Part shown: in pieces, positions 1 through 47,489 of the stretch
Layout: the number at the start of each line of letters is the position of its first letter
Position numbering within the stretch: position 1 is the first letter of the stretch
Assembly: GCA_963924555.1 (NCBI GenBank)
Contig: OZ004594.1
Location: 5,735,563-5,799,562, forward strand
From: Crambe crambe
Taxonomy: Eukaryota; Porifera; Demospongiae; Poecilosclerida; Crambeidae
DNA length: 64,000 nt
Reading direction: 5' to 3'
Notes under the pieces: model-generated
What the model was told of the DNA's origin: nothing
What the model saw: only the letters and a program-made list of their open reading frames with translations
Databases searched by the model: none
Made by a program: the position numbers and the translations under genes

Positions 1-342
1 ACTGCTTTGATGTATTCCAGTGAAAGAAATAAGTTGGAAATGGCCAAACTATTACTAGAGAATGGTGCTCAGGTTGACATTCAGGATTATGGTGGGTGGT
101 CTGCTTTGATGATTGTCAGTTTAACGGGACACCTTGAGATTGTAAACTGCTGTTAGACCATGATGCTCAGGTTGATCTACAGCAGAAAGGAGGGGTGGTC
201 TGCTCTGATGATGGCCAGTCAAGGAGGACATTTTGAAGTGACCCAACTGTTGTTGAACAACGGGGCTCAAGTGGACATGCAGGCCATGATGGTGAAAAGT
301 GTGCCCTCTTTGTTGTCAGTCATTTTGGGCATGATCAAGTAG
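1..342 (+). pseudogene. Ankyrin-repeat end, gene copy 1 (cut by window start)
   Basis: Translation shows about three ankyrin repeats with the family signature, for example GGWSALMIVSLTGHLEI and KLLLENGAQVDIQD. The frame shifts near 147-160, where this copy lacks one T present in copy 4 (46490-46530). The second half then reads as GGHFEVTQLLLNNGAQVDMQ before running out. Ankyrin repeats are protein-binding scaffolds. The gene continues leftward out of the window, and its inverted partner at 46319-47489 shows the missing upstream repeats. The broken frame suggests a pseudogene, unless it is a base-call error. ZU5, UPA-like and death-domain exons follow on the same strand. Confidence 0.8.
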
Positions 343-577
343 TTGCACTCCTCTTAAATAATGGGAACTGTTCTCCAACTGTCAAACTTTTGAATAGCAA
401 AGTAAGTATGGATGTATTTCTTGGGTGAACTAGATACACTGGGACATTTTATCTCCTTGCCCCCACCTTTAAAAATCCCCCTGTAGTAGGTATGCTGCTA
501 ATGGTAGCTTATTTATGTGCTGGAGAAGTCTTCGTTATTTTTCTCATGTCATAAGTCTATTTTTCTTTTTTTAACAG

Positions 578-1079
578 GAGTACCCTGGTATAGTGTTTGA
601 TGAATATCCAAAAAATAGCAACTATCACATTGTCCACAGACACGGTGAACTTTGAGTATGTGGGCGTATCTGCATCGATACCAAAGCAAGAGCTGGATCA
701 GGGGAGTCAAATGGAAGTATTCGTTCATCCCTGTGTGACTGGATCCTTCATACTCCCAGATGGTTACAAGCCGGCTAGTCCTGCCTACCTCATGCAACCT
801 ATTACAAAGGGGAAATTGCAAAATAATGTGATAGTGCATATCCAGCACTATGTTAGTCTGGAGAGTAAAGAAGACTGTGAAGACATGGCATTCCTTGTTG
901 CCGGCACCACCCCCAAGTACAGAGAATCCAACCCAGTTTGTGCCTTTCGAAAGATAGAGGGAGAAGATGGTGCCTTCAATGTGGGAGACAGATTTGGAAC
1001 ATTTGCTCTCAAGTCTTTCAATTTAATACAAGTGGTTAGGAGGATCAATATATCTGATGTAGAGAGGTATTTAATGTGA
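578..1079 (+). pseudogene. ZU5 domain exon, gene copy 1
   Basis: An acceptor (TTAACAG) precedes the exon at 578. The translation contains the ZU5 core: SQMEVFVHPCVTGSFILPDG, then YKPASPAYL, GKLQNNVIVHI, and a C-terminal GDRFGTFALKSF. ZU5 domains occur in ankyrins, UNC5 receptors and PIDD, and in PIDD the ZU5 region supports autoprocessing; no HFS autocleavage motif is visible here. Copy 2 (16458) reads VFDENPTITLSTDTV without interruption, whereas copy 1 has 10 extra bases near 612-623, so its first codons and the rest lie in different frames. Conversely copy 2 is frameshifted further on. The domain call is firm; whether this copy can be translated is doubtful. Confidence 0.72.
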
Positions 1080-1443
1080 TGATAAAGGAGTAGTGTCACT
1101 ATGCCTTTGATTTTATAATGTACTGCTTTTTTTAAGCATCGAATTGTGTCTGATCCATGTACTCTGCTGCATTGAATCATAATACAGTGTTTCAATAGAG
1201 GCAGTGTACATAGTCAGGAACAGTGCTTCATTAAATGAATATTGTTACGTGACTAATAATAATAATTGCCCAATAACATATTTATTGTGAACAGAAAAAA
1301 TTCTCTACTCGGTGAGATCTCTTCGCATTACTAACACAGGTCTTCATGCAGTAGCAGTATTTCATGCTTGTTTGAACCACCCTGTCTACCTGAAGGTAGT
1401 TATGCATGTAATGGTTTATTTATGACCATGATAATTGTTGTAG

Positions 1444-1890
1444 TACTGTGATGACATCATAGCCAGTCATCAGCCCCAACAAATCTCCAACGAGAAAGGA
1501 ATTACTGGAGAGATGGCACTTGGTGATACCGACATTATTCTGGAGACGACAGATGATCAAGGATGGGATATAAAAGAGTCAAGTATGTTAATGTAATGTG
1601 GATAATCATGAAAGAAAATTTCAAAGCTCTATTATTCATAAGACTGTCGCAGGACCATTCCATAGCAAGATCTGTGAATAGCATACCTGAGCATTATAAT
1701 ATGGAATACAATTTAAAAGATTAATTATTATTATTATAGATCACAAAGAAGAGCGTTCACCTTCCTGAAGAGGACATTGTCACCTTTAGCAATTATTCTC
1801 CAAGCATTACAATTACTGGACATAAAACTTCTTCTACCTCCTTGGCTTGTGTGGTTACACACTACATGACCTTCATGAACATGAATACAG
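1444..1890 (+). pseudogene. UPA-like domain exons, gene copy 1
   Basis: Two exons lie at 1444-1582 (after TTGTAG, before GTATGT) and about 1740-1890. The first reads MALGDTDIILETTDDQGWDI and the second ITKKSVHLPEEDIVTF. Position between ZU5 and death domains fits the UPA domain of UNC5, PIDD and ankyrins; the call rests on position plus weak similarity. The second exon of copy 2 continues with PPELHVIGMDEECSFSLSV, but copy 1 has lost about 210 bp here. It is joined instead to sequence that is intronic in copy 2, and a stop follows at 1889-1891. This deletion is shared with A' (copy 4). Confidence 0.55.
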
Positions 1891-1894
1891 GGTA

Positions 1895-2450
1895 GGTCAT
1901 CCGCGATCTCGTTTGTACACATGCACAGTACACCCATTATCGATATCCAATGGGCGTTTGGCAGGCATTGATGCGGAGTCTGCTGCTAATTAATAACTAG
2001 CTGCGGGTGATATCATGTGAATACAGGGTACAGTGAATTGCAAGTTGGTAGTCCAATATAAGATGTAAACTTGAGGCTGTTCCTGAATAGATGTGTGGCT
2101 TTTCCTCAATATATGCAAGTTTTTATTGCAGTCAATTTGTGCTTTTTACATTTACACACTTAGGACCCAGCCTTTTGTCCTTTGTAGAGAGGTTGTCCTC
2201 TTTTGGAAGTTATTTTGTATAGAGTGTATGCTCGTCATCTATTAATAAGAGGTTTAGTCTCTTTCATAATGTCCTTCATTGGAAGTTCCACTCTAAGACT
2301 TGTAATTTTATAGCCTATCATTCTGAATGCTACCAAAAAGAATCCTTTTTAAGAACTTGATAGAAAATACTGATGACAGTGAGCTCAGTAAGTGGTCCAC
2401 GGTGACTTAATAATGTGAGGTAAATGTTCTGTACCTGCATATTATCATGC
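1895..2450. other. Non-coding stretch, partly unlike other copies
   Basis: No coding signal is visible. It holds about 110 bp (near 1900-2010) absent from arm B', flanked by the repeated phrase TGAATACAGGGTA. The rest is intron-like and recurs in A' at about 44200-44760. Confidence 0.5.
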
Positions 2451-2452
2451 AG

Positions 2453-2701
2453 ATCCTGATGATCATGGAGATGTGTTGGACTCAGTAGAGACTCTTTCTG
2501 CTCAGTGGAAGCGACTTTGTACTAAATTACGACTGCAGGGAACTGCACTGAGCAAATGACTACCCGAAAGATAGTATGATGTGTCTGGATCTTGCCTTGA
2601 TGGAGTGGCTGAAAATGAACTATAACCATCAGAAGTATGGGAGACCAACCTGGAAGAGATTGGCTAAGGCTGTGGGAGAGCTGGACTATAGACTCTTTAA
2701 A
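2453..2701 (+). pseudogene. First death-domain exon, gene copy 1 (frameshifted)
   Basis: The exon follows ATGCAG and ends at GTAAGG. It encodes a death-domain fold: DPDDHGDVLDSVETLSAQWK, helix KLRLQGTALSK, then in another frame MMCLDLALMEWLKMNYN and YGRPTWKRLAKAVGELDYRL. The W-x-x-L and RPTW-K-x-L signatures are typical of death domains, which self-associate in apoptotic and NF-kB signalling complexes. An 11-base deletion near 2558 (compared with FQQDYP in copy 2) shifts the frame and yields a stop. The same deletion occurs in A' (copy 4). Copies 2 and 3 lack this deletion but carry a TGA where copy 1 has CGA (the R of QWKR). Confidence 0.8.
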
Positions 2702-2859
2702 GTAAGGGAGGGGCTTGGAATGGGGGGATACATTGTCCATTTATTTTTAGAGCAATCTCCTTTCTCATCACTACCTCTATCTTCTGTATCTCTTCTGCTT
2801 CCACCATCAGTTCCTGCACAAAGACTACCAGGTAAGTCAGAGATGCAGTTTTGATGATT

Positions 2860-3137
2860 TTTTCCCCCTTCTTCTTAATAGAGAGCTTACGTCAGTAATG
2901 CATTCTCTTATCTGACATTTAACAATAATAATAAACACTGGCTTGGTGGACAGACAAATTATGATAAGCATGGAGCCATGGGATCTATTCCTACTCTTAT
3001 TATGACCATAATGTTATCCTGATAAGTGTTATAGGGCAGTTTAGGGAATTGGTTGTTGGAAACATGCTCAAATCAGAGTCCACTGAGTAATATTGGTTTT
3101 TCCTCCTCTTTTTGAGAATACCACATTAGCAACATAT
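2860..3137. other. Intron, nothing recognised
   Basis: Lies between the two death-domain exons. It is the counterpart of 19390-19640 in B'. Short low-complexity runs only. Confidence 0.4.
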
Positions 3138-3598
3138 GTGTATTATTGGCCACTTGTTAATTTAGCGAATTTAGCGAGTAGGCCTTTATTTGCTAATATA
3201 AGCACGGGCTAATAATAAAATTTCGTATAATTAGAAGTAATATTGAACAAAAACAGTGCTAGCTGTTTGAGTGTCCTGGCGGAGTTAGCTAGCTAGCTAG
3301 ATTGCTATTGTCTTCATCAGTGTCTGTTTCAGATACTTCTGATTTCATGGACTCAAGAAGCAGTAGGGTGGAAAAAGGCAGGAAGCAGAAGATCCTTTTT
3401 GTTCAATCTACAAAAAACTAACTCTCCAATGATAGTTACTGACACAATAATGTTCATGCCTGATATTCTTGAAGCAACTTCGTACGAAACTATACATTTA
3501 AAAATAGCTATTACAAAGCTCAAAATAGCTAAAACTAATACCCGCTAAATACAGTATCCCCTTAAAACACTAAAATTAGTAGCCGCCGATAATACCCA
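3138..3598. mobile_element. Small inverted-repeat element in A, absent from B'
   Basis: About 460 bp interrupts sequence that is continuous in B' near 19660. Ends are inverted: GTGTATTATTGGCCAC at the left and, read inward from the right, GGGTATTATCGGCGGCTAC. The A' copy begins GGGTATTATTGG. Inside are repeated phrases with TTAGCG and AATAGCT. No coding capacity. It occurs in both A and A', so it inserted before that duplication and after A and B' separated. Confidence 0.7.
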
Positions 3599-3820
3599 CC
3601 TTAAGGTACATTATAGAGTTTGCATTATTATTCCTATGATGTGGTTGGTGCAGAGTAAAATGACTTTGTGCATGTCATGTAGATAATATCTTGCTGGAAC
3701 TTGTGGATCAGAGTTTGCTAAGCGAGTGCAACTGTAATTATGACCTTGAAACTCCCATATAAATTTGTCTATCCATTTAGCAGCACCTACGAAATTACCA
3801 AAACAATCACTTTTACCTAA

Positions 3821-3984
3821 TGTCTATTTACATTCACTTGATCCTGTGATCGTTCACTATATCTTCTGTTTAAGACACCAGCAGAGAGCTGATCACCCAC
3901 TCTATGAGCTGGTTGTTTTGTTGTTTTATTGTTTTTTTAGCAGTTATAATAAATTATCAAGGGATCAAGTGAATGCAAATAGGC
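3821..3984. mobile_element. MITE-like element with GATCA ends (copy in A)
   Basis: Ends are inverted: TCTATTTACATTCACTTGAT at the left and ATCAAGTGAATGCAAATAGG at the right. The interior holds GAGCTGATCACCCACTCT. Related copies lie at 7749-7940, 12487-12677, 19863-20053, 24600-24791 and 42630-42796. Length is about 165-190 bp with no coding capacity. Confidence 0.75.
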
Positions 3985-4077
3985 TTTAGTGGTTATTCCT
4001 TATTAAGAACAACATATTTTTTTCCACAAAGAATCGTTGTTTTTTTTCCTTCATATACGTATTTTGTTCTATTTTAG

Positions 4078-4767
4078 CACCTGAGGATTATGGAGAAGTG
4101 TTCAATTCAATTGAAAGCCTTTCTGCTCAATGGAGGCAATTATTTACTAAGCTACATTTAAAAGGGTCTGCATTGGACAGGATCCAGCAAAACCACCCCA
4201 GGGATAGTGCAATGTGTCTCAACATGGCCATGATGGAATGGCTCAAACTAAACTACAACTATCACAGGTAAAGAGAAAAAATTGGGAAAGGAGGTAGTTA
4301 ATTTCATAGACATGCATAAAAATATCAATACATGTAGTTATTAAAGCTAGCCTTTTCTACGAAGGCTGAGGTCACCTTGAAAGTTGGTATCCTAGTAGGC
4401 AAAATAGAGCCTTTGTGAGTGCATGTCTGTAGTGTGTGGATGATGACCTGAAATAGATTCTTCATGCAGTTTCTTTGTGCTGCTGCAGCATTTAGAAAAC
4501 GCTATCCCTAGGTGTTTGGCATTAGGATTATTTCTACGACTAGACATCCAATTATGTATGGTGTCCTTGGGGTTCTGAGGTTAGATCAGTCAGACCAGAC
4601 TCAAGTTGCAAAAGGCCTGTGGGTACAAATTGAATCCACTTGCTAATCGTGTTCATTAGTTGCTTATACATACGCACATAGGTATGGGAGACCAAGCTGG
4701 AAGAAATTAGTAAAGGCTGTAAAGGATATTAATTATGCACTTTTTGAAACTATCGCTACAAAACAAA
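4078..4767 (+). CDS. Second death domain, gene copy 1 (two exons)
   Basis: Exon 4078-4267 (after TTTTAG, before GTAAAG) encodes APEDYGEVFNSIESLSAQWR, then LHLKGSALDRIQQNHPRDSA and MAMMEWLKLNYNYH. Exon 4682-4767 (after CATAG) encodes YGRPSWKKLVKAVKDINYAL. Together they form a complete six-helix death domain of about 95 residues, with the W-R-Q-L and RPSWKKL signatures. No lesion is seen, unlike copies 2 and 3, where four extra bases near the end of the first exon shift the frame. Death domains recruit other death-domain proteins in cytosolic signalling complexes. The intron of about 410 bp has nothing else recognised. The domain is intact, but upstream exons of this copy are broken. Confidence 0.75.
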
Positions 4768-5329
4768 GTAAGTTTTTATAATGCAAGTTTATTAATTTCC
4801 TTTTTTTCCCTGTTATACCAGCCTGCAAAGTTATGTAACGATTCTGCTGTACCACTATTTGCTGTATGTGATTGAAAGTTATTGTTTATGTGAAATTGGA
4901 TCCCAGATGTCAAAATTATATTTTGTAGCCAATGGAATAACCTTTAATAAATAGCTGCTTGGGAGAGGAGTGGTGGCGAAGCTAACCTATTTGTATGGTA
5001 ACCTTAGGTGGGGGGTGGGGCAGACCTGTAACACTATAGCCATCCAACTAGCCTTGAAAGTTAGCTTCTTCTTTTTCTTCAGACCCTCCCTCTCTCAAAC
5101 ACACTCCATGCGATGACACTTCAGTTTGACATAGGTGCAAAAGTATTAAGTTATCAACTAGGGATGCAAAGCATTGTGGGGCAAGCGCACATGCTCAGTT
5201 TACCCAAGGTCATCACGGAAAGAAACTACAATGTTAGGATGGACGTACAATATAAATATTTATACGTATAAAGGTGAAAGGTCATCATCACTAGTGTGGG
5301 GATACCCCCATTACAGTGTCTTAACTAAT

Positions 5330-5371
5330 CATAGATATTATGGGAAGGCCAAGCTGGAAGAAACTCTCCCC
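5330..5371 (+). pseudogene. Third death-domain remnant (last exon only)
   Basis: A short stretch reads MGRPSWKK-like (TATGGGAAGGCCAAGCTGG) after TCATAG, similar to the second exon of the other death domains. The matching first exon is not found. In A a run of about 20 C follows directly. In B' the same exon start (21520) runs into leucyl-tRNA synthetase sequence, so this is the point where the two copy types part. Confidence 0.5.
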
Positions 5372-5593
5372 TCCCCCCCCCCCCCCCCCCCCCACCCCAC
5401 TTACAATGAAAGCCAGCTGCCACACACACACACAAAGCTTCCTGGGTATGGCATTATTACTGTGCAGATTCCAAATAGGTCAACTATATCCCTTAGTGAG
5501 TGTGTCATTATAATCAGCATACAAGTTGCTACAGACATCATTCGACATTTAGAAGACAAGTGTCTTATACGTAGCTACATAGCTAGCACTAAC

Positions 5594-6394
5594 ATGCATC
5601 AAACTGCTGTAATGCTTCTTTGGCTGTTGGCCACTACTTCCTGGTGCAAACCAACGATTAGAGTGAACTCAAGGGATCATGATACACCATTTGGAAATCG
5701 CATTGCACATCAGAAAGTGAGCTGAGTTGAATGATGATTTAGTACATGATTGCAGCATTTCAAATAAATGGGAAAGGAGCCATTTCTGCATGGGTGGATT
5801 CATTGAAATGAGATGGGGAGTTTTTGTCCAATGCCATTTTAGTAACCAGTGTGTTTGAATTTAAGACAACCTTGACATAATTCTATAGGATGCGTTTCCT
5901 CTCATGGAAGTTGATGATGATCTTCCTAAACTTGACTCGATATAATAGCAATGGAAAATACTTTGAGGGTGATTTGGCCATCAGCAGAGAGCTGATAAAA
6001 GCATACTACGAGGAGCCAGTAAATGCTGAAGTAAGTTCACTACATAATTATGATTGTAGAGCCTGGGAACGAGGCTAATCATGTACATCGCTTGTCATTC
6101 ACCTTTTAGCATACATACCTACATACCATGTAGAACAAGAAAGGTGTTTTAAGCATAAAGAAGTGCAATAATAGACTGGAACCTTTTTATAACCATTTAG
6201 ATTTCCACAACTCCAGTACAAGAGTCTCTATGCTGGCTGATAGTCTTGTGTGTACCCCACTGTATTGGTGTAGCGACCTTTGCCATCTGAACGAAATACC
6301 AGAGTATCTTCTCCAGCATGTTCTGTTTCTTGGAAGTCAAACAAGTCTTCTCGCTCCACTCTCTGATTGCTACTTTGATCTTTCCTGCTGTAGA
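5594..6394 (+). pseudogene. Astacin-like protease, 5' exons (copy in A), exon 3 inverted
   Basis: Exon 1 (5594-5716) starts at ATG and encodes a signal peptide (MHQTAVMLLWLLATTSWC), so the product would be secreted. Exon 2 (5889-6031) holds the propeptide, including KYFEGDLAISRELIKAYYEE; the FxGD motif is the aspartate switch that keeps astacin zymogens inactive. A missing base before YNSNGKYFEGD breaks this exon (two stops follow in the original frame). The next catalytic exon (6243-6394) is on the opposite strand: read on -, it gives IKVAIREWSEKTCLT and, after a one-base shift, LVFRSDGKGCYTN. The zinc-binding part is not in this arm. Broken by frameshifts and an inversion. Confidence 0.72.
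6058..6078. repeat. Solo end of the helicase-fragment element
   Basis: The phrase GCCTGGGAACGAGGCTA matches the terminal inverted repeat of the 39604-40386 element. Its mirror lies at 40522-40542. Confidence 0.5.
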
Positions 6395-6403
6395 GTCGTT
6401 CAC

Positions 6404-6910
6404 ACTGCAGTCGACTTGGTTGCAGAATGATGGATCATCAGTGTTGATGAGTGCAAGTGCAAATGGGAATGTGGATGCTGCTAGAAAATGGGTGCTCAAA
6501 AGGAGACCTATCAACTGTTTAGTATGCAGCTATACAGAATAAGAGCAAAGCTATTGGAAATGGTGCTCAGGTCGATCAACTATTTAACAGAAATGGATTC
6601 CCTCCTTTGATGTCGGCAAGCTATGATGGATACGCTGAAGTGGTTGATGTCAGTGGCGCTACTAAATATCGACTTGCAGGATAAAGATGGGTGGAGTGCT
6701 GTATTCCTTGCCAGTAGACATGAGTGGTCAACTTGCTTCTCGATAGCATGCTCATTCACCTGCAGGAAAATGAAGGGAAATCGGCTATATTCCTTGCATG
6801 TGAAGAAGAGCACATCACATGGACAGTGTATAACATTGATTTGTTCTTCAGTTCTGCCACAAAAGTCACTTTACACTACATAATAATTATGGTCAATGTT
6901 AGCTAGTCGT
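6404..6910 (+). pseudogene. Degenerate ankyrin repeats at outer end of arm B
   Basis: Reading on + gives GSSVLMSASANGNVDAARKW, NGFPPLMSASYDGYAEVVD and DLQDKDGWSAVFLAS: ankyrin repeat pieces separated by frameshifts and stops. The mirror on - is at 25630-26136, where the repeats continue to about 26330. On the left this sequence is cut abruptly against the inverted astacin exon at 6403, marking a rearrangement junction. Confidence 0.65.
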
Positions 6911-6964
6911 TTTGTTATTAGTGCCTTTTTATAATAAATTGATGTCTGCACAAACAAGAATGGC

Positions 6965-7745
6965 ATGAGAGTTATCAAAGAAACAAGACTCCTCTGCTGC
7001 CTCAACTGTCAATTAGAGGGCTTTTTCCAACAATTAATTATAATGCTAAGCCCCAAACCCCTCCTCTCTCCCTTAGTGTCATGGCAATTGATGAATTTTG
7101 AAGACGATAGAAGTCATAGAATGCTGTTTTTTTATGAAGCCCCATTATACATCGAATGTGTCACTGAAAATTAGGAGTGAAACCTGAAGGAAACTTGATA
7201 AGGAAATTCATAGAATATACGAAGGCACGGCATGTTTCATCGTTTTCGCCATGCCCTTGCATATCCTACAAAAAATACACTGTGTTTCCTTCAAGTTTCT
7301 CAGGGATCTCATAGTGTGTGGAACTTTGTGAACACAATTCAATTCTCTAACTAATGGGGATACATGAAGTATTATTGATCACACAGCTGTAATAACAGTC
7401 TAGTTCCTTTAGCTATATAGTTGCTGTGCACACATAGGTTCCAACATATGGTCTATGGTGCACATCACTCTACCAAGACTTACGTAGCCATTGAAATATT
7501 GATAAAGGTGAGATGAGACAAAATTGATTTTCCAAAGCTGGGTAATACATCATTTGGCAAAATTAATAACTCGACCATGAGGTGCCACATATATTTTAGT
7601 GGAACTCATATCACTGTTGCAAAGCATTATCCTGTTCAAGAGCAACAGCTTCACTTTGCAGGGATTCACGATTCACGGGATCACACATTTCTGACGGGAT
7701 CCCTTTCTGACCCCATTAACCTGCATGATGATACATAATATTATC
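6965..7745. other. Non-coding stretch in arm B
   Basis: No supported gene. It contains an imperfect inverted repeat near 7180-7320, where the phrase CTGAAGGAAACTTGATAAGG is echoed by CCTTCAAGTTTCTCAGGGA around the phrase GAAGGCACGGCATG. The mirror is at 24795-25575. Confidence 0.4.
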
Positions 7746-7748
7746 ACA

Positions 7749-7940
7749 CTCATCTATTTGCGTTCACCTGATACTGTGATCACCATAACTATAACTGCTA
7801 TAACGTTCTCAATTCTTAACCAAATTTAAAATTTCAAAACTAGCTCATAGAGTGGGTGATCAGCTCTCTGCTGGTATTATAAACGGTCAAGAACTGAGAA
7901 AGTTAGAACCGATAAATATAGCGAATGATCAAGGGACCAC
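7749..7940. mobile_element. MITE-like element with GATCA ends (outer copy, arm B)
   Basis: Same family as 3821-3984. It holds TCATAGAGTGGGTGATCAGC and has inverted ends around TTGCGTTCACCTGATACTGT and the reverse complement of the other copies' start. Mirror at 24600-24791. Confidence 0.65.
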
Positions 7941-8002
7941 TTTAGTACTGATCCCTCACTTTCTTTGTTTGACACAATTCTATCAGCCTATACATTAATA
8001 CA

Positions 8003-10990
<2,988 letters not shown>

Positions 10991-11687
10991 GTTTCTTCCA
11001 GTTTGGCCTTCCCATATACCTACGATTAGTTAAGATACTGTAATGGGGGTACAAAGATTATGATGACAAGGGTCAGCCTAATGGTAATCTAGATCCACAC
11101 ACTAGTGATGATGACCTTTCGCCTTCATAATTATTATGCAAATGTTTATAAATATTTATATTGTACGTCCATCCTAACATTGTAGTTCCTTTCCGTGATG
11201 ACCTTGGGTAAACTTAGCACGTGCGCTTGCCCCACAATCCTAGTTGATAACTTAATACTTTTGCACCTTTGTCAAACTGAAGTGTCATCGCATGGAGTGT
11301 GCTTGAGAGAGGGAGGGTCTGAAGAAAAAGAAGAAGCTAACTTTCGAGGCTAGGGAGAGAAGTTGGATGGCTATAGTGTTACAGGTCTGCCCCACCCCCC
11401 ACCTAAGGTTACCATACAAATAGGTACGCTATGTTAGCTTCACCACCATTCCTCTCCCAAGCAGCTATTTATTAAAGGTTATTCCATTGGCTACAAAATA
11501 TAATTTTGATATCTGGGATCCAATTTCACATAAACAAATAATTTTCAATCACATACAGTGAACAGTGGTACAAAATTCAGAGGGTCAATTCCAATAATAG
11601 TTATAGCAGAATCGTTACATAACTTTGCAGGCTGGTATAAAAAAAGGAAAATTAATAAACTTGCATTCTTGCATTATAAAAACTTAC

Positions 11688-32660: not shown

Positions 32661-32664
32661 CAGT

Positions 32665-35500: not shown

Positions 35501-36039
35501 GCACACCTAAAATGGTTGCAGGCCAAAAAAGTAAATTTAATTTTCGCGAAATTAAAATTCGCGTCATTTTAACTATTGTAGCTGTGCAATGAGCGAAATT
35601 AATATATTTCGCGCATAGCGCAACTTCAAGGTAAAAAGTTTGAAGCTTCATACTTTTGCTTCCATAGTGAAAATTCAATGGCACCCCTTCTGAATAGCTT
35701 TAATATGGTATGATAAATCACATTACAAAAAATTATGCTTTGGTCCAGTTGGTAACGATTTCATGAAAAATTCTGCGAAATCGACCTGACTATAAATAGC
35801 TCACGAGCTCACGAAACGTTCACGAAGCTCCCAAAAATTGTTTACATAGGCTAGGCAACCGCAGTATCGCGAAGGAAGGCTCGCGAGTGAATTCGTGTTA
35901 AGTGCAAGTGCTTGACGAACCCTTCGCGAAGCCTCGCGAGCATAAAGAGTTTTTTGCAACGTACCGTTAATAAGAACTGTGCAGTATAACACTATAAGCT
36001 AAATCACCAAATTGAGATGGAGCCAGAAAGTTGTTTTAC

Positions 36040-36281
36040 CCACTTCAGTTCTAGAATTCCATTACTAAACAGAGAAAACTTGTCTACAGGTTCAGCTAGC
36101 AAACATATTTTACTGCCCCTAGTCATACCATCAATGAATGTGCCCATGTTATTCCTCCTTAAGGAGGCAACAAGATCATTTAGTGAAGTATGGTGAACTG
36201 GATTAGGATCCAAAGCACTGGTAACTTTAAACAACTGATGGATAGTAACTGTATCTGATCCATAAGCAAGAAGATCTAACA
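36040..36281 (-). CDS. Single exon on -, possibly an inverted MCMDC2 exon
   Basis: A good acceptor (TTCATTTGCAG) precedes the exon on - and a donor (GTAAAA) follows. The frame is open throughout: VLDLLAYGSDTVTIHQLFKV, then LNDLVASLRRNNMGTFIDGM and SKICLLAEPVDKFSLF. It weakly resembles the central MCMDC2 segment (LDILIITSDT type) missing from the + exons, but lies on the opposite strand. It would be an inverted exon, or an exon of another, unidentified gene. No neighbouring exons were found on -. Confidence 0.4.
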
Positions 36282-36539
36282 CTGCAAATGAAAAATATCA
36301 AAGTAGAAGTCATGCATGTCAGATGATTGATACAAAGTAGAATGAACAATCGATTGAACTTAATTAATCAGTTTGCCTTTACTGCATTAGCTTAATGACC
36401 ACACATGAGCTGCTTCCAATCCTGTGTATGTACATACGATGAACCAAAGAACTTGAGTGTCATGAATGGCTTACGTAGGTCTGGATCTGGTGGTATTGTG
36501 ATCCTTTCCTTCAGTGATAGAATGTGTATGACTGATTTT

Positions 36540-38790: not shown

Positions 38791-38794
38791 GTTT

Positions 38795-39090
38795 ATCTTT
38801 ATTTTTATTTCGTCATGACTCCTAAATCAAAGATATTTTTATAATCATGACCCATGCTATCTGTTGTGTATCCAACATTTTAATTTGTGTGTGCAATGGC
38901 AATTCATTGTTTCTTATGTAAGTACTGTCAAGAAAGAGTGTCAGCGCAGAGTTATCACCATTAGCCTTGTTCCTGGTATTATTTGTCAGAAAACAGTTAA
39001 ATACAATGTTGTATAATTATCATCATCATTATTATAATAATATATATTCAAGGTCATATAGAGTTTGTTGATTGTTACACAGTCACTCAC
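38795..39090. other. No gene recognised
   Basis: AT-rich spacer between the ends of the MCMDC2-like gene (+) and the astacin C-terminal part (-). Confidence 0.4.
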
Positions 39091-39092
39091 AC

Positions 39093-39430
39093 TTAAGTGT
39101 CGAGTTCTTCCGAGGTATGGGCTTCCTTGAGACCAATATCGATTGTGTTCCTCCCATTTTTACTAAATGCCTTTTGGTTGTAGTGCATGATCGAACCATA
39201 ATCATATCCCAGTTCATATGTATTCACTTCAGACCTGGTACGGCTTTTAAATTGACTCAGGTACCCTTGAGGTATTATTTTCTTTGTTGATCTTGATGTA
39301 CAAGTCTCGATCGGGTCTGGTATGTTCGTGCCATAGTCCAATTGCATGGCCTATTTCATGGAGGATAACATGATGAAAATCACATCCAGGTGTTTATATA
39401 TTGATTGTTATCCAGAAGGAAGAGTAGTTT
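39093..39430 (-). pseudogene. Astacin catalytic C-terminal part with zinc site
   Basis: On - the sequence reads [19 protein letters not shown] and [20 protein letters not shown]: the complete astacin zinc motif HExxHxxGxxH followed by RPDRD. After a frame change near 39262 it continues SEVNTYELGYDYGSIMHYNQ, the Met-turn (SIMHY, with the conserved tyrosine), and KAFSKNGRNTIDIG. A TAA interrupts the stretch before TPGC. The matching N-terminal catalytic exon is nearby, but on the opposite strand (39454-39605). Astacins are secreted or membrane zinc endopeptidases. Pseudogene by frameshift, stop and inversion. Confidence 0.82.
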
Positions 39431-39453
39431 ATCACATCCATAAAAGTGTGAAC

Positions 39454-39605
39454 GACTCTACAGCAGGAAAGATCAAAGTAGCAATCAGAGAGTGGACCAA
39501 GAAGACTTGTTTGACTTCCAAGAAACAGAACATGCTGGAGAAGATACCCTGGTATTTCGTTCAGATGGCAAAGGTTGCTACACCAATACAGTGGGGTACA
39601 CACTA
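39454..39605 (+). pseudogene. Astacin catalytic exon 3, inverted (arm A')
   Basis: On + it reads STAGKIKVAIREWTKKTCLT and, one base shifted, FQETEHAGEDTLVFRSDGKG and CYTNTVG. This is the N-terminal lobe of the astacin catalytic domain. Its propeptide and signal exons (40568-41007) and its zinc-site exon (39093-39430) are all on -, so only this exon is turned round. The same inverted exon occurs in A (6243-6394, -), so the inversion predates the A/A' duplication. The end of the exon is interrupted by the element at 39604. Confidence 0.75.
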
Positions 39606-40386
39606 GCCTCGTTCCCAGGCTCTCAGTGAAACGGGAAATGTGGGGGTGGAAAGGAGAGCCTGGTTTCTACTGCAGACCGGATCCCTCACATTCCGGGGGA
39701 TTTGGATTCCCTCCGTACTTTCCCGTTTTTGATTTCATCATAATTATTATTTTGTCTAATCAGCGTTTTTTTGTGCAAGATGGCGAGTTCGTTTCTGAGA
39801 GTGTTTCTTTTAGCGTTTCTTCAAGCGATTCAAGTTCCCACTATCCGCAAGCGCTTTCTCATGCCCTGTCAATGCTTGGTTTACCCGAACTGTTGCTGAA
39901 GGAAGAGCAGAAGCTGGCTATCCGAGCTGTATTTGATGGCAAGGACATGTTCGTGCCCCTGCTCTCAAGGGATCTCCGCAAAGAAGATCTGGCCAGCTCT
40001 TTGAAGCTAGTAATGTTTGCAGTTGCCTTCTCCAAGGAAACTATTCTCCTCTTGCAAGCTTAACAGATGTGTGATGGGAAGGGGTCATCTGGAGCTAGCT
40101 CAGGGACATCCAGGAGTTTGTCGATCCTAAAAGCCCACTTCTATGATAATCCAGAACTGCTGAACAAGGCAATGGCTGCACTCTGCTCATGATCACACAA
40201 GCGACATGCAATTTCGTACTGCGCGTTTGTACTAATTGTGACGTTTACTTAATAATTACATCATCAATCGTGTTATGAATATAATTATGTGATCAAAATT
40301 TACACGCCCGTGCATGCAGTAGAAACCAGGCTCTCCTTTCCGCCCCCACATTTCCCGTTTCACTGAGAGCCTGGGAACGAGGCTAG
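39604..40386. mobile_element. 783-bp inverted-repeat element carrying a RecQ-like fragment
   Basis: Flanked by an 8-bp duplication GTACACAC (39596-39603 and 40387-40394); the empty site is intact in arm A (6240-6260). Terminal inverted repeats of about 72 bp start TAGCCTCGTTCCCAGGCTCT. Eight-base duplications are typical of hAT-type elements (inference). The interior has a continuous frame (about 39780-40062, +) reading LGLPELLLKEEQKLAIRAVF and DGKDMF, which matches the region just before the ATP-binding loop of RecQ-type helicases. The loop itself (GKS/T) is missing. A non-autonomous element that picked up host or helicase-transposon sequence. Confidence 0.82.
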
Positions 40387-40567
40387 GTACACACAAGACT
40401 ATCAGCCAGCATAGAGACTCTTGTACTGGAGTTGTGGAAATCTAAATGGTTATAAAAAGGTTCCAGTCTATTATTGCACTTCTTTATGCTTAAAACACCT
40501 TTCTTGTTCTACATGGTATGATTAGCCTCGTTCCCAGGCTCTACAATCATAATTATGTAGTGAACTT

Positions 40568-41007
40568 ACTTCAGCATTTACTGGCTCCTCGTAATATGCT
40601 TTTATCAGCTCTCTGCTGATGGCCAAATCACCCTCAAAGTATTTTCCATTGCTATTATATCGAGTCAAGTTTAGGAAGATCATCATCAACTTCCATGAGA
40701 GGAAACACATCCTATAGAATTATGTCAAGGTTGTCTTAAATTCAAATACACTGGTTACTAAAATGGCATTGGACAAAAACTCCCAATCTCATTTCAATGA
40801 ATCCACCCATGCAGAAATGGCTCCTTTCCCATTTATTTGAAATGCTGCAATCATGTACTAAATCATCATTCAACTCAACTCACTTTCTGATGTGCAATGT
40901 GATTTCCAAATGGTGTATCATGATCCCTTGAGTTCACTCTAATCGTTGGTTTGCACCAGGAAGTAGTGGTCAACAGCCAAAGAAGCATTACAGCAGTTGG
41001 ATGCATG
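40568..41007 (-). pseudogene. Astacin signal-peptide and propeptide exons (arm A')
   Basis: Exon 1 (40884-41007) begins MHPTAVMLL; one extra T near 40980 compared with arm A shifts the signal peptide out of frame. Exon 2 (40568-40710) encodes the propeptide with KYFEGDLAISRELIKAYYEE, again preceded by the one-base loss seen in A. Mirror of 5594-6031. Confidence 0.7.
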
Positions 41008-41848
41008 TTAGTGCTAGCTATGTAGCTACGTATAAGACACTTCTAAATGTTGAATGATGTCTGTAGCAACTTGTATGCTGATTATAATGACACACTCACT
41101 AAGGGATATAGTTGACCTATTTGGAATCTGCACAGTAATAATGCCATACCCAGGAAGCTTTGTGTGTGTGTGGCAGCTGGCTTTCATTTTCTCTTTGTAA
41201 GTGGGGTGGGGAGAGTTTCTTCCAGCTTGGCCTTCCCATAATATCTATGATTAGTTAAGACACTGTAATGGGGGTATCCCCACACTAGTGATGATGACCT
41301 TTCACCTTTATACGTATAAATATTTATATTGTACGTCCATCCTAACATTGTAGTTTCTTTCCGTGATGACCTTGGGTAAACTGAGCATGTGCACTTGCCC
41401 CACAATGCTTTGCATTCCTAGTTGATAACTCAATACTTTTGCACCTATGTCAAACTGAAGTGTCATCGCATGGAGTGTGTTTGAGAGAGGGAGGGTCTGA
41501 AGAAAAAGAAGAAGCCAACTTTCAAGGCTAGTTGGATGGCTATAGTGTTACAGGTCTGCCCCACCCCCCACCTAAGGTTACCATACAAATAGGTACGTTA
41601 TGTTAGCTTCACCACCACTCCTCTCCCAACCAGCTATTTATTAAAGGTTATTCCATTGGCTACAAAATATAATTTTGACATCTGGGATCCAATTTCACAT
41701 AAATAATAACACATACAGCAAATAGTGGTACAGAATTCAGAGGGTCAATTCTTATGATAGCAGAATCGTTACATAACTTTGCAGGCTGGTATAACAGGAA
41801 AAAAAAGGAAATTAATAAACTTGCATTATAAAAACTTACTTTGTTTTG

Positions 41849-42538
41849 TAGCGATACTTTCAAAAAGTGCATAATTAATATCCTTTACAGCCTCTGCTAA
41901 TTTCTTCCAGCTTGGCCTCCCATACCTATGTGCATATGTATAAGCAATTAATAAACACGATTAGCAAGTGGATTCAATTTGTACCCACAGGCCTTTTGCA
42001 ACTTGAGTCTGGTCTGACTGATCTAACCTCAGAACCCCAAGGACACCATACATAATTGGATGTTGAGTCGTAGAAATAATCCTAATGCCAAACACCTAGG
42101 GATAGCGTTTTCTAAATGCTGCAGCAGCACAAAGAAACTGCATGAAGAATCCATTTCAGGTCATCATCCACACACTACAGACATGCACTCACAAAGGCTC
42201 TATTTTGCCTACTAGGATACCAACTTTCAAGGTGACCTCAGCCTTCGTAGAAAAGGCTAGCTTTAATAACTACAGTAGTAGGTTGTATTGATATTTTATG
42301 CAGGTCTATGAAATTAACTACCTCCTTTCCCAATTTTTTCTCTTTACCTGTGATAGTTGTAGTTTAGTTTGAGCCATTCCATCATGGCCATGTTGAGACA
42401 CATTGCACTATCCCTGGGGTGGTTTTGCTGGATCCTGTCCAATGCAGACCCTTTTAAATGTAGCTTAGTAAATAATTGCCTCCATTGAGCAGAAAGGCTT
42501 TCAATTGAATTGAACACTTCTCCATAATCCTCAGGTGC
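41849..42538 (-). CDS. Second death domain, gene copy 4 (two exons)
   Basis: The exon of about 42349-42538 reads APEDYGEVFNSIESLSAQWR and MAMMEWLKLNYNYH. The exon of about 41849-41934 reads YGRPSWKKLAEAVKDINYAL and ESIATKQ. No lesion is seen, as in copy 1. The small change LVKAV to LAEAV separates copy 4 from copy 1. Mirror of 4078-4767. Confidence 0.73.
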
Positions 42539-42629
42539 TAAAATAGAACAAAATACGTATATGAAGGGAAAAAAAACAACGATTCTTTGTGGAAAAAAAT
42601 ATGTTGTTCTTAATAAGGAATAACCACTA

Positions 42630-42796
42630 AAGCCTATTTGCATTCACTTGATCCCTTGATAATTTATTATAACTGCTAAAAAAACAATAAAACAACAAAA
42701 CAACCAGCTCATAGAGTGGGTGATCAGCTCTCTGCTGGTGTCTTAAACAGAAGATATAGTGAACGATCACAGGATCAAGTGAATGTAAATAGACAT
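42630..42796. mobile_element. MITE-like element with GATCA ends (copy in A')
   Basis: Mirror of 3821-3984, with the same inverted ends. Confidence 0.75.
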
Positions 42797-43018
42797 TAGG
42801 TAAAAGTGATTGTTTTGGTAATTTCGTAGGTGCTGCTAAATGGATAGACAAATTTATATGGGAGTTTCAAGGTCATAATTACAGTTGCACTCGCTTAGCA
42901 AACTCTGATCCACAAGTTCCAGCAAGATATTATCTACATGACATGCACAAAGTCATTTTACTCTGCACCAACCACATCATAGGAATAATAATGCAAGCTC
43001 TATAATGTACCTTAAGGT

Positions 43019-43479
43019 GGGTATTATTGGCGGCTACTAATTTTAGTGTTTTAAGGGGATACTGTATTTAGCGGGTATTAGTTTTAGCTATTTTGAGCTT
43101 TGTAATAGCTATTTTTAAATGTATAGTTTCGTACGAAGTTGCTTCAAGAATATCAGGCATGAACATTATTGTGTCAGTAACTATCATTGGAGAGTTAGTT
43201 TTTTGTAGATTGAACAAAAAGGATCTTCTGCTTCCTGCCTTTTTCCACCCTACTGCTTCTTGAGTCCATGAAATCAGAAGTATCTGAAACAGACACTGAT
43301 GAAGACAATAGCAATCTAGCTAGCTAGCTAACTCCGCCAGGACACTCAAACAGCTAGCACTGTTTTTGTTCAATATTACTTCTAATTATACGAAATTTTA
43401 TTATTAGCGTGTGCTTATATTAGCAAATAAAGGCCTACTCGCTAAATTCGCTAAATTAACAAGTGGCCAATAATACCCA
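43019..43479. mobile_element. Small inverted-repeat element in A'
   Basis: Mirror of 3138-3598. Ends here are GGGTATTATTGGCGGCTAC and, read inward from the right, GGGTATTATTGGCCACTTG, a clearer inverted repeat than in arm A. Confidence 0.72.
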
Positions 43480-43942
43480 TATGTTGCTAACGTGGTATTC
43501 TCAAAAAGAGGAGGAAAAACCAATATTACTCAGTGGACTCTGATTTGAGCATGTTTCCAACAACCAATTCCCTCAACTGCCCTATAACACTTATCAGGAT
43601 AACATTATGGTCATAATAAGAGTAGATATTTTAGGAATAGATCCCATGGCTCCATGCTTATGTAATAGGCTCATAATCTGTCTGTCCACCAAGCCAGTGT
43701 TTATTATTATTGTTAAATGTCTCTGGAATAGATAAGAGAATGCATTACTGACGTAAGCTCTCTATTAAGAAGAAGGGGGAAAAAATCATCAAAACTGCAT
43801 CTCTGACTTACCTGGTAGTCTTTGTGCAGGAACTGATGGTGGAAGCAAAAGAGATACAGAAGATAGAGGTAGTGATGAGAAAGGAGATTGCTCTAAAAAT
43901 AAATGGACAATGTATCCCCCCATTCCAAGCCCCTCCCTTACT

Positions 43943-44190
43943 TTAAAGAGTCTATAGTCCAGCTCTCCCACAGCCTTAGCCAATCTCTTCCAGGTTGGTC
44001 TCCCATACTTCTGATGGTTATAGTTCATTTTCAGCCACTCCATCAAGGCAAGATCCAGACACATCATACTATCTTTCGGGTAGTCATTTGCTCAGTGCAG
44101 TTCCCTGCAGTCGTAATTTAGTACAAAGTCGCTTCCACTGAGCAGAAAGAGTCTCTACTGAGTCCAACACATCTCCATGATCATCAGGAT
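43943..44190 (-). pseudogene. First death-domain exon, gene copy 4
   Basis: Mirror of 2453-2701. It carries the same 11-base loss that breaks the frame between GTALSK and MMCLDLALMEWLKMNYN. Both A-type copies share this lesion; B-type copies do not. Confidence 0.75.
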
Positions 44191-44762
44191 CTGCATGATA
44201 ATAATGCAGGTACAGAACATTTACCTCACATTATTAAGTCACCGTGGACCACTTACTGAGCTCACTGTCATCAGTATTTTCTATCAAGTTCTCATCTACA
44301 CATAAAAAGGATTCTTTTTGGTAGCATTCAGAATGATAGGCTATAAAATTACAAGTCTTAGAGTGGAACTTCCAATGAAGGACAATATGAAAGAGACTAA
44401 ACCTCTTATTAATAGATGACGAGCATACACTCTATACAAAATAACTTCCAAAAGAGGACAACCTCTCGTACCAGGATAAAAGGATGGTCCTAAGTGTGTA
44501 AATGTAAAAAGCACAAATTGACTGCAATAAAAACTTGCATATATTGAGGAAAAGCCACACATCTATTCAGGAACAGCCTCAAGTTTACATCTTACATTGG
44601 ACTACCAACTTGCGATTCACTGTACCCTGTATTCACATGATATCACCTGCAGCCAGTTATTAATTAGCAGCAGCCTCCGCATCAATGCCTGCCAAACGCC
44701 CATTGGATATCGATAATGGGTGTACCGTGCATGTGTACAAACGAGATCGCGGATGACCTACC

Positions 44763-45216
44763 CTGTATTCATGTTCATGAAGGTCATGTAGTGTGTAACC
44801 ACACAAGCCAAGGAGGCAGAAGAAGTTTTATGTCCAGTAATTGTAATGCTTGGAGAATAATTGCTAAAGGTGACAATGTCCTCTTCAGGAAGGTGAACGC
44901 TCTTCTTTGTGATCTATAATAATAATAATTAATCTTTTAAATTGTATTCCATATTATAATGCTCAGGTATGCTATTCACAGATCTTGCTATGGAATGGTC
45001 CTGCGACAGTCTTATGAATAATAGAGCTTTGAAATTTTCTTTCATGATTATCCACATTACATTAACATACTTGACTCTTTTATATCCCATCCTTGATCAT
45101 CTGTCGTCTCCAGAATAATGTCGGTATCACCAAGTGCCATCTCTCCAGTAATTCCTTTCTCGTTGGAGATTTGTTGGGGCTGATGACTGGCTATGATGTC
45201 ATCACAGTACTACAAC
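44763..45216 (-). pseudogene. UPA-like exons, gene copy 4
   Basis: Mirror of 1444-1890: MALGDTDIILETTDDQGWDI (exon of about 45078-45216) and LPEEDIVTFSNYSPSITITG (about 44763-44915). It has the same deletion of the PPELHVIGMD segment as copy 1. Confidence 0.55.
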
Positions 45217-45578
45217 AATTATCATGGTCATAAATAAACCATTACATGCATAACTACCTTCAGGTAGACAGGGTGGTTCAAACAAGCATAAAATACTGCT
45301 ACTGTATGAAGACCTGTGTTAGTAATGCAAAGAGATCTCACCGAGTAGAGAATTTTTTCTGTTCACAATAAATATGTTATTGGGCAATTATTATTATTAG
45401 TCACGTAACAATATTCATTTAATGAAGCACTGTTCCTGACTATGTACACTGCCTCTATTGAAACACTGTATTATGATTCAATGCAGCAGAGTACATGGAT
45501 CAGACACAATTCGATGCTTAAAAAAAGCAGTATATTATAAAATCAAAGGCATAGTGACACTACTCCTTTATCATCACA

Positions 45579-46080
45579 TTAAATACCTTTTGTTCTCTCT
45601 ACATCAGATATATTGATCCTCCTAACCACTTGTATTAAATTGAAAGACTTGAGAGCAAATGTTCCAAATCTGTCTCCCACATTGAAGGCACCATCTTCTC
45701 CCTCTATCTTTCGAAAGGCACAAACTGGGTTGGATTCTCTGTACTTGGGGGTGGTGCCGGCAACAAGGAATGCCATGTCTTCACAGTCTTCTTTACTCTC
45801 CAGACTAACATAGTGCTGGATATGCACTATCACATTATTTTGCAATTTCCCCTTTGTAATAGGTTGCTTGAGGTAGGCAGGACTAGCCGGCTTGTAACCA
45901 TCTGGGAGTATGAAGGATCCAGTCACACAGGGATGAACGAATACTTCCATTTGACTCCCCTGATCCAGCTCTTGCTTTGGTATCGATGCAGATACGCCCA
46001 CATACTCAAAGTTCACCGTGTCTGTGGACAATGTGATAGTTGCTATTTTTTGGATATTCATCAAACACTATACCAGGGTA
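45579..46080 (-). pseudogene. ZU5 domain exon, gene copy 4
   Basis: Mirror of 578-1079. It reads SQMEVFVHPCVTGSFILPDG through GDRFGTFALKSF and ends DVERTKGI, because 9 bases missing from copy 1 are present here. The early frame change (10 extra bases before TITLSTDTV) is shared with copy 1. Confidence 0.74.
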
Positions 46081-46318
46081 CTCCTGTTAAAAAAAGAAAA
46101 ATAGACTTATGACATGAGAAAAATAACGAAGACTTCTCCAGCACATAAATAAGCTACCATTAGCAGCATACCTACTACAGGGGGGTTTTTAAAGGTAGGG
46201 GCAAGGAGATAAAATGTCCCAGTGTATCTAGTTCACCCAAGAAATACATCCATACTTACTTTGCTATTCAAAAGTTTGACAGTTGGAGAACAGTTCCCAT
46301 TATTTAAGAGGAGTGCAA

Positions 46319-47489
46319 CTACTTGATCATGCCCAAAATGACTGATAACAAAGAGGGCACACTTTCCACCATCATGGCTTGCATGTCCACTTGAGCCCCG
46401 TTGTTCAACAACAGTTGGGTCACTTCAAAATGTCCTCCTTGACTGGCCATCATCAGAGCAGACCACCCCTCCTTTCTGCTGTAGATCAACCTGAGCATCA
46501 TGGTCTAACAGCAGTTTACAAATCTCAAGGTGTCCCGTTAAACTGACAATCATCAAAGCAGACCACCCACCATAATCCTGAATGTCAACCTGAGCACCAT
46601 TCTCTAGTAATAGTTTGGCCATTTCCAACTTATTTCTTTCACTGGAATACATCAAAGCAGTCCTCCCTCTGTTATCCTGCAGGTCGGCTTGAGCTCCCTT
46701 TTCCAGCAGTAATTTGACAACTCCAGAATGTCCTTCTTTACAAGCAAGCATTAAAGGAGATCCCCATTCTTCTTTCTGAAGGTTAAGCTGAGCACCATTT
46801 TCTGCCAACACTTTGGCTGCTTCAGTACGTCCTTCTTGACAAGCAAACATCAAAGCAGATCGCCTGTTATTCTCCAACAGCACCGTATTCCACTATGTCC
46901 TTTTTCACTAGCACTGATCAGAGCCGAAGCCCCACTACCTGTCTGTTGGTCTACTTGAGCACCATTTTCTAGCAGCACCTAAATATCCTCCCTGACTGCC
47001 TATCATCAGAGGAGAATGCTCTTTACTCCACTGAAAATCTATCCTTGCCCCATTTTCTATCAATACTTTTAATACCCTTAAGCATTAAAGCTGATCTCCC
47101 AATATTGTCAAGTATATCAACCTGAGCACAACTTTTCAGGAGCAACCTGGCCACTTCAGGATATCCCTCATTGCTGGCAATAAGCAATGCAGTATCTCTG
47201 CATATCAACCGTAGCACCATTTTCTAGCAGGATCTTTACCACTTTAGAATGTCCTTTTTTCACAGTGACCACCATCCTTTTGCTTCAAGTCCACCCGAGC
47301 GCGATACTCAACAATCAGTAGCTGAACAATATTGAAATACCATAACAAACTGGATATCATCAAAGCTGTTAGACCACTGGTGTCTTGAAAATCAGTATTA
47401 GCACCATTTTCTAGCAGCAATTTGGCCATCTTAAAGTGGCCTCTTCCACAGCTAGCCATCAAAGCAGATTGTCCACTATTATCTTGCAA
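46319..47489 (-). pseudogene. Ankyrin-repeat region, gene copy 4
   Basis: At least eight ankyrin repeats of about 33 residues. From the N-terminus: GQSALMASCGRGHFKMAKLL, GLTALMISSLLWYFNIVQLL, DTALLIASNEGYPEVARLLL, RSALMFACQEGRTEAAKVLA, GSPLMLACKEGHSGVVKLLL, RTALMYSSERNKLEMAKLLL, GWSALMIVSLTGHLEICKLL, GWSALMMASQGGHFEVTQLL. Frame changes occur near 46440, 46885, 47040 and 47240, each within or between repeats. No start codon with upstream context is seen: the region begins next to a mobile element at 47513. The ZU5 exon follows at 46080. The layout (ankyrin, ZU5, UPA-like, death) matches that of animal ankyrins. Confidence 0.8.

What the first reader, a model, noticed from the sequence alone, without database searches (positions are those of the whole stretch)
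1..46661. Two interleaved inverted duplications (A-B-B'-...-A')
A pairs with A' and B with B' as reverse complements, while A and B' are also direct paralogues. The B/B' arms are about 9 kb each with constant coordinate sum 32540 over their outer 6 kb. Such an arrangement could be a genuine palindrome maintained by gene conversion, two haplotypes joined tail to tail, or a read-level fold-back. The asymmetric centre (15.4-17.7 kb) contains three different repeats.
Basis: seen in the sequence. Interest (0 to 1): 0.8.

Follow-up and report, generated by a model that had tools for sequence, protein, structure and literature searches.

The report
Sponge gene palindrome, possible centromere neighbourhood
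A stretch of sponge DNA was copied back to front and partly re-matched by copying between its two arms, and it belongs to a set of related gene fragments that sits in one region on every one of the animal's 18 chromosomes, as centromere-linked DNA might.

Summary
The repeats are real. The window lies on chromosome 14 (C17) of the sponge Crambe crambe, identified by published lengths. The 'two interleaved inverted duplications' are better read as ONE interrupted palindrome: left arm A+B (-832 to 15376) is the reverse complement of right arm B'+A' (17711-47494), with 13.3 kb (U, 26136-39444) lost from the left arm. Both right-arm junctions recur on C14; the left A|B junction is derived, with 2-bp microhomology. 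Divergence is about 1% in A/A' (79/7145) and inner B/B' (14/1407) but 1/6730 in outer B/B': a homogenised tract, probably gene conversion. Arms carry private insertions and a deletion, so fold-back reads or joined haplotypes are unlikely; reads were not available. Unexpected: the modules (ANK-ZU5-Death gene pieces, mitochondrial-type leucyl-tRNA-synthetase-like pieces) fall in one domain on each of 18 of 18 chromosomes (177 of 178 tallied hits). Six domains hold long inverted duplications, but direct ones are about as common. This suggests centromere-linked DNA without proving it: no Hi-C or CENP-A data were available, and reverse transcriptases are absent from the domains and, if anything, scarce around them (0 of 150).

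The parts
1..6406 (+). A: outer half of left arm (continues 832 bp left of the window); ZU5-like exon 594-1076, Death-domain exon in 3990-4268, ankyrin-like frames at its outer end
   Evidence: Pfam ZU5 E 0.0069 (below its cut-off), Death E 7.6e-5; ankyrin match scanned on the A' copy 46428-46892
6405..15376 (+). B: inner half of left arm; leucyl-tRNA-synthetase-like exons 8183-10261 (-) and a truncated copy of the Death/ZU5 gene (-)
6405..13136 (+). homogenised tract, left copy (1 mismatch in 6730 against 19406-26135)
6404..6407 (.). A|B junction: derived deletion joint with 2-bp microhomology (CT); U is missing here
13823..14648 (.). 826-bp insertion private to B
15377..17710 (.). spacer: repeat pieces (15377-16453), gene piece 16454-16746, 907-bp insertion 16747-17653 with CCGG duplication, gene piece 17654-17710
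17711..26135 (-). B': inner half of right arm, reverse complement of B; keeps 285 bp (17933-18217) that B lost
19406..26135 (-). homogenised tract, right copy
26136..39444 (.). U: present only in right arm; its ends recur beside A- and B-like modules elsewhere; 27786-35966 is extra here, with a Tc1-like transposase
39445..47494 (-). A': outer half of right arm, reverse complement of A
39604..40386 (.). 783-bp insertion with inverted ends and 8-bp target duplication; empty site in A

Best explanation
The window holds one real, interrupted inverted duplication on chromosome 14 of the sponge Crambe crambe. A block made of an ANK-ZU5-Death gene, U, a leucyl-tRNA-synthetase-like piece and a second truncated gene copy was duplicated head to head around a loop of about 0.4 kb (inferred; a fold-back or template-switch event would do it). 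Later the left arm lost 13.3 kb (U) through a 2-bp microhomology, and transposons landed in the loop and in single arms. The outer 6.7 kb of B/B' was recently made nearly identical, most likely by gene conversion. Its edge coincides with the deletion joint, so one repair event (copying B' outward, then end-joining to A) could have made both; that step is inference. The block is one copy of a duplicon that sits in one domain on each of the 18 chromosomes, in both direct and inverted pairs, so recombination between copies is the likely source of the architecture.
For: Repeats. Right-arm junctions are ancestral: alignments to C14 run straight across 39444/39445 and 26135/26136 (21637-26340). C10 carries the order A-like, U ends, LARS-like X, inverted gene copy. 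C12 and the second C17 locus hold U's right end followed, after an unaligned ~0.4 kb, by A-like sequence. Equal age: A/A' 79/7145 against inner B/B' 14/1407, Fisher p 0.89; outer B/B' 1/6730, p 7.6e-22 against A/A' and 2.6e-10 against inner B/B' (with another alignment setting, counted 89 mismatches in A/A'). Private changes in each arm. Longest run that cannot tell the arms apart is 3.67 kb; the mean HiFi read is about 6.9 kb (67.94 Gb / 9.82 million reads, PMC12166358 Table 1). Comparable palindromes: C14, 17.5-kb arms at 99.91%; C12, constant sum 7553644 over 6.3 kb. One domain per chromosome.
Against: No read, Hi-C or second-haplotype data were examined. The inner-B sample is small (1407 sites) and its differences are clustered. 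The equality of divergence could be a coincidence of two separate duplications. Conversion is inferred from low divergence alone; a recent second duplication of that tract would look alike. In C14 an 11.1-kb run cannot tell the arms apart, so that comparison locus is less secure.
Confidence: 0.78

Rival explanations
1. Two separate inverted duplications of different age, an older A/A' and a recent B/B', nested as the first reader drew them.
For: A/A' 96% against B/B' 99.7% by BLAST.
Against: Inner B/B' is as diverged as A/A' (0.995% against 1.106%, p 0.89). Both right-arm junctions are shared with C14, and the joint at 6405 then needs no second duplication.
Confidence: 0.15
2. Assembly artefact: haplotypes joined tail to tail, or fold-back reads.
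For: Such artefacts exist; [quoted passage not shown]
Against: Both arms are flanked on both sides by different sequence in one gap-free 114 kb. Arms carry a private 783-bp insertion with target duplication, an 826-bp insertion and a 285-bp deletion. The A|B joint overlaps by 2 bp only. Distinguishing sites lie closer than the mean read length. 459-fold HiFi coverage is reported.
Confidence: 0.06
3. A giant transposon with long terminal inverted repeats.
For: Inverted arms around internal ORFs, one a Tc1-like transposase.
Against: No target-site duplication seen by eye at -832/47494. U, with the transposase, is missing from one arm. Arm ends differ between the loci compared. Copies keep to one domain per chromosome, unlike the dispersed repeats.
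Confidence: 0.03
4. The one-domain-per-chromosome pattern is only a duplication-prone gene cluster that spread between chromosomes, unrelated to centromeres.
For: Copies are gene pieces, some with open frames. Six listed SRCR matches lie between the two C9 sub-clusters. Reverse transcriptases: 0 of 150 in the domains (2.4 expected) and 5 of 150 within 0.25 Mb of them (11.8 expected). Direct collinear pairs are about as common as inverted ones (94 against 109 pairs).
Against: 18 clusters falling one on each of 18 chromosomes has a chance near 1.3e-7 if placed at random by length (after the fact, and with hits up to 0.7 Mb apart merged). SRCR and other ZU5 genes do not do this.
Confidence: 0.5

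Closest known systems
Large gene palindromes kept alike by gene conversion (human Y/X type; PMC6790999, search listing with start of abstract; otherwise recalled)
   Same: Near-identical inverted arms with genes; homogenisation between arms; structural change in one arm.
   Different: Sponge chromosome 14, gene pieces with many broken copies in the family, near-identity limited to part of the arm, 13.3 kb lost from one arm.
Inverted-repeat regional centromeres of Candida tropicalis and fission yeast (PMC4741521 and PMC7292649, passages)
   Same: One place per chromosome; inverted repeats more alike within a chromosome (C17 99.7%, C14 99.9%) than between chromosomes (about 75-94% for long matches); exchange between chromosomes implied.
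   Different: Larger and irregular (0.01-0.6 Mb), built from gene pieces, direct pairs about as common as inverted, no kinetochore evidence.
DSB-induced fold-back inverted duplications (PMC10622511, abstract)
   Same: Inverted duplication around a short loop with secondary rearrangement.
   Different: Shown there in yeast repair mutants, through dicentric chromosomes; here an interstitial copy with about 1% divergence.
Human pericentromeric segmental duplications (recalled)
   Same: Gene-derived duplicons exchanged among chromosomes near centromeres.
   Different: Here one domain on every chromosome of a 143-Mb animal genome; centromere position unknown.

Membership tests
Gene-conversion palindrome | long inverted arms, above 99% alike, with a short spacer | tested here: met
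   B/B' 99.73% over 7.4 kb, spacer 2.3 kb with later insertions; A/A' only 96%
Gene-conversion palindrome | arms more alike than their age predicts | tested here: met
   outer B 1/6730 against about 1% in neighbouring arm parts, if the arms are of one age
Gene-conversion palindrome | reads spanning the junctions at normal depth | not testable with these tools
   no reads held
Inverted-repeat regional centromere | one locus per chromosome on all chromosomes | tested here: met
   18 of 18; 177 of 178 tallied hits, hits up to 0.7 Mb apart merged
Inverted-repeat regional centromere | inverted repeats around a core at each locus | tested here: inconclusive
   inverted collinear pairs of 5 kb or more on 6 of 18 (C12, C14, C16, C17, C18, C21), shorter on C10 and C11; most other domains known only from hit tables; direct pairs of 5 kb or more on C6, C9, C12, C16, C18, C19
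Inverted-repeat regional centromere | CENP-A / kinetochore binding | not testable with these tools
   no ChIP data
Inverted-repeat regional centromere | inter-chromosomal Hi-C contact hotspot | not testable with these tools
   Hi-C run ERR12512721 exists but is not held
Retroelement-rich pericentromere | enrichment of reverse transcriptases | tested here: not met
   0 of 150 RVT_1 hits in the domains (2.4 expected), 5 of 150 within 0.25 Mb (11.8 expected); 150 of 801 candidates were scored
Transposon with long inverted termini | target-site duplication at the outer ends | tested here: not met
   none seen by eye at -832/47494

The most novel reading that the evidence does not exclude
The 18 domains are the centromeres or pericentromeres of Crambe crambe: centromeric DNA of a sponge built from gene-derived duplicons, often in large inverted repeats, that recombine between chromosomes, an animal parallel to the inverted-repeat centromeres of fission yeast and Candida tropicalis; the window palindrome would be part of chromosome 14's. 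(I first put this at 0.42; on recounting the reverse-transcriptase control and the direct pairs, I lowered it.)
Probability: 0.37. Interest if true: 0.87.

Novelty: new variant of a known kind. Interest (0 to 1): 0.6.

Why it matters
If the domains are centromeric, they give sequence-level candidates for all 18 centromeres of a sponge. They would show that inverted-repeat, inter-chromosomally exchanged centromeric DNA is not limited to fungi, and public Hi-C data could test this at once. If not, a gene-derived duplicon confined to one domain on every chromosome is itself unexplained. The palindrome also gives a natural case in which a deletion joint and a homogenised tract share an edge.

Tried and rejected
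Rejected: giant transposon (no target duplication seen at the ends); joined haplotypes and fold-back reads (see rivals). The 43-bp satellite at 49.6 kb looked like a centromere satellite because C14's palindrome centre holds it, but most of the listed hits lie away from the domains (213 matches, list cut). The right flank 52.0-57.5 kb is not domain-limited. Selection on the copies: among distinct copies in the loci in hand, stops occur in ZU5-like 2 of 5, Death-1 5 of 12, Death-2 7 of 19, LARS exons a 2 of 4, b 0 of 6, c 0 of 4, d 2 of 4; pooled dN/dS 0.23-0.79 (undefined for LARS c) mixes the two paralogous Death exons, so it proves neither function nor decay. A toxin-antidote origin from a tRNA synthetase, as in the nematode C. 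tropicalis (PMC12680543, abstract), was considered but not tested. Rfam: no match at the gathering threshold in the window. Literature: among the papers listed (15 of 15; 15 of 67; 10 of 60; 12 of 8,888, not limited to Crambe) no title or abstract start describes sponge centromere sequence or sponge palindromes; this is not a full search. The Ephydatia muelleri paper mentions a centromere once, as a likely scaffold split (passage).
Full report
Where it is. The window is C17:5735563-5799562 of a 143.14-Mb genome in 119 contigs. C11 is 7,656,483 bp and C119, with COX1, is 19,532 bp. These equal the scaffold N50 and the 19.53-kb mitochondrial length published for the sponge Crambe crambe odCraCram1.1 (PMC12166358; passages, section 5). 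By its Table 2, C17 (6.80 Mb) is chromosome 14.

The repeats. Self-BLAST of the window and of 114 kb around it without any N confirms the observation. A runs from -832 to 6406 and pairs with 47494-39445. B runs from 6405 to 15376 and pairs with 26135-17711. A and B' are direct paralogues. A and B abut with a 2-bp overlap. The stated ends 1 and 46661 are the window edge.

One palindrome, not two. The right arm's junctions are found on C14: one alignment crosses 39444/39445 without a break and another crosses 26135/26136 (21637-26340). At C12 and at a second C17 locus the same modules are neighbours, with about 0.4 kb unaligned at the joint. C10 has the order A-like gene, right end of U, left end of U, tRNA-synthetase-like X, inverted gene copy. 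So B'-U-A' is the old order, and A|B on the left is a deletion joint with the 2-bp microhomology CT. U in this window also holds 8.2 kb (27786-35966) that the C10 and second C17 loci lack, with a Tc1-like transposase.

Divergence. Counting aligned bases, A/A' differ at 79 of 7145, inner B/B' at 14 of 1407 and outer B/B' (6405-13136) at 1 of 6730 (with another alignment setting one search counted 89 for A/A'). The first two do not differ (p 0.89); the third differs from A/A' (p 7.6e-22) and from inner B/B' (p 2.6e-10). One age for the whole inverted duplication plus a homogenised tract of about 6.7 kb explains this. The tract ends at the deletion joint. That fits one repair event, but also a later conversion that stopped where homology stops.

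Private changes. A' has a 783-bp insertion with inverted ends and an 8-bp duplication, and A has the empty site. B has an 826-bp insertion and lacks 285 bp that B' keeps; A matches most of that stretch, so B lost it. The centre holds a 907-bp insertion with a CCGG duplication inside the ZU5-like exon; 15377-16130 matches dispersed repeats, and 16153-16451 recurs mainly inside the domains (in which 40 of 1949 candidates were scored). Without these the loop is about 0.37 kb (A-equivalent 591-958).

Artefact. Read data were not available. The case against an artefact rests on different flanks on both sides of each arm, the private changes, the 2-bp joint, and a longest indistinguishable run of 3.67 kb against a mean read of about 6.9 kb computed from Table 1. 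For C14 the longest run is 11.1 kb, so that locus is less safe.

What it encodes. Ankyrin repeats (A' copy), a ZU5-like exon (E 0.0069, below Pfam's cut-off), Death domains (E 7.6e-5, and 1.3e-4 just under the cut-off) and exons of a bacterial/mitochondrial-type leucyl-tRNA synthetase with tRNA-synt_1 and anticodon-binding matches (best PDB matches Leucine--tRNA ligase). Several copies carry stops: 20 of the 78 PF13603 matches, and. Other exons show none.

One domain per chromosome. I searched the own genome with X (6405-10980), the right end of U, A's first 2350 bases and, without using the repeat itself, the Pfam family PF13603 of leucyl-tRNA synthetase. Of PF13603's 78 matches, 77 fall in one domain per chromosome on 18 of 18 chromosomes; one (C16 6.07 Mb) is outside. 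X alone was found on 15 and U on 14 chromosomes. I tallied 178 hits: 78 of 78 PF13603, 58 of 63 X and 42 of 51 U. 177 lie in the 18 domains, hits up to 0.7 Mb apart being merged; C1 and C9 each have two sub-clusters about half a megabase apart. The 5 dropped X hits lie in domains. Of the 9 dropped weak U hits, one at C10 5.45 Mb is clearly outside; two others lie 45 kb and 0.29 Mb from the C10 domain. One search was not tallied: of its 77 matches 12 lie outside, one of them a 1.8-kb relative at C10 3.61 Mb (0.4 Mb from the C10 domain) and 11 short pieces of query 2022-2337. In one search the query part 138-609 is a dispersed repeat. The domains, measured between tallied hits, span 0.01 to 0.6 Mb, 2.3 Mb in all (1.6% of the genome), at 0.19-0.86 of chromosome length. 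Placing 18 clusters at random by length, one on each chromosome, has probability 1.3e-7; this is after the fact. The correspondence of C3, C5, C6 and C8 to chromosomes 2-5 is inferred from sizes.

Controls. SRCR genes (175 matches, list cut) cluster at several places on a few chromosomes; 6 listed rows lie in the C9 span. Of 64 ZU5-family matches, on 9 chromosomes, one lies in a domain (C15), and one on C6 lies just outside. Reverse transcriptases (150 of 801 candidates scored): 0 of 150 in the domains, 2.4 expected, and 5 within 0.25 Mb, 11.8 expected, so no enrichment and perhaps a shortage. This counts against an ordinary retroelement-rich pericentromere. The 43-bp satellite and the right flank are mostly elsewhere.

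Order within domains. From 195 typed hits (58 of 63 X, 42 of 51 U, 20 of 77, 75 of 78 PF13603) there are 109 inverted and 94 direct pairs. Collinear inverted pairs spanning at least 5 kb occur on C18 (22.9 kb), C21 (8.8), C16 (7.9), C12 (6.3) and C14 (5.3; actual arms 17.5 kb); with the window's own C17 palindrome that is 6 of 18. Direct collinear pairs of 5 kb or more occur on C6, C9, C12, C16, C18 and C19; those on C12, C16 and C18 may be by-products of the palindromes. So inverted order is common, but not clearly commoner than direct order.

Reading. The palindrome is an ordinary mechanism (inverted duplication, deletion, conversion) in an extraordinary place. The place behaves in part like centromere-linked DNA: one per chromosome, internal, shared between chromosomes, more alike within than between where measured (C17, C14). 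C. tropicalis centromeres show that combination (passages). Against it: no retroelement enrichment, genes inside the C9 span, irregular architecture, as many direct as inverted pairs, no chromatin data. I put it at 0.37, down from 0.42 before the recount.

Noticed in passing
C14:3158895-3176401 / 3178692-3196197 (L014-L018): A 17.5-kb-arm palindrome at 99.91% with a 2.29-kb spacer; its inner ends are tandem repeats related to the 43-bp unit of the window.
   Followed up: partly
C18:3.502-3.557 Mb: Five hit pairs with nearly constant coordinate sum imply a palindrome with arms of at least 22.9 kb; sequence not read.
   Followed up: no
window 49592-49836: 43-bp satellite; elsewhere (C1, C5, C6, C9, C13, C14, C18) listed arrays often come as divergent minus/plus pairs, as in fold-back elements.
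   Followed up: partly
genome-wide, PF13603: 78 matches to the leucyl-tRNA synthetase editing domain, 20 with stops; best at C10:3184418-3184855. Which copy is the working gene is unknown.
   Followed up: partly
27786-35966: 8.2-kb insertion in U absent at the C10 and second C17 loci, with Q-rich and weak BEN-like ORFs (E 0.033) and a Tc1-like transposase; no clear terminal repeats found.
   Followed up: partly
54868-55605: ORF with a DDE_1 transposase match; a 94% relative of the surrounding 1.6 kb at C18:4744548.
   Followed up: no
-4805 to -3796, 15464-15727, 63275-63576: Self-complementary hairpin elements, 81-89% between their own halves; there are others.
   Followed up: no
-3000 to -1385: Tandem blocks (79-82% alike) just outside A, perhaps further ankyrin-repeat exons; frame not checked.
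   Followed up: no
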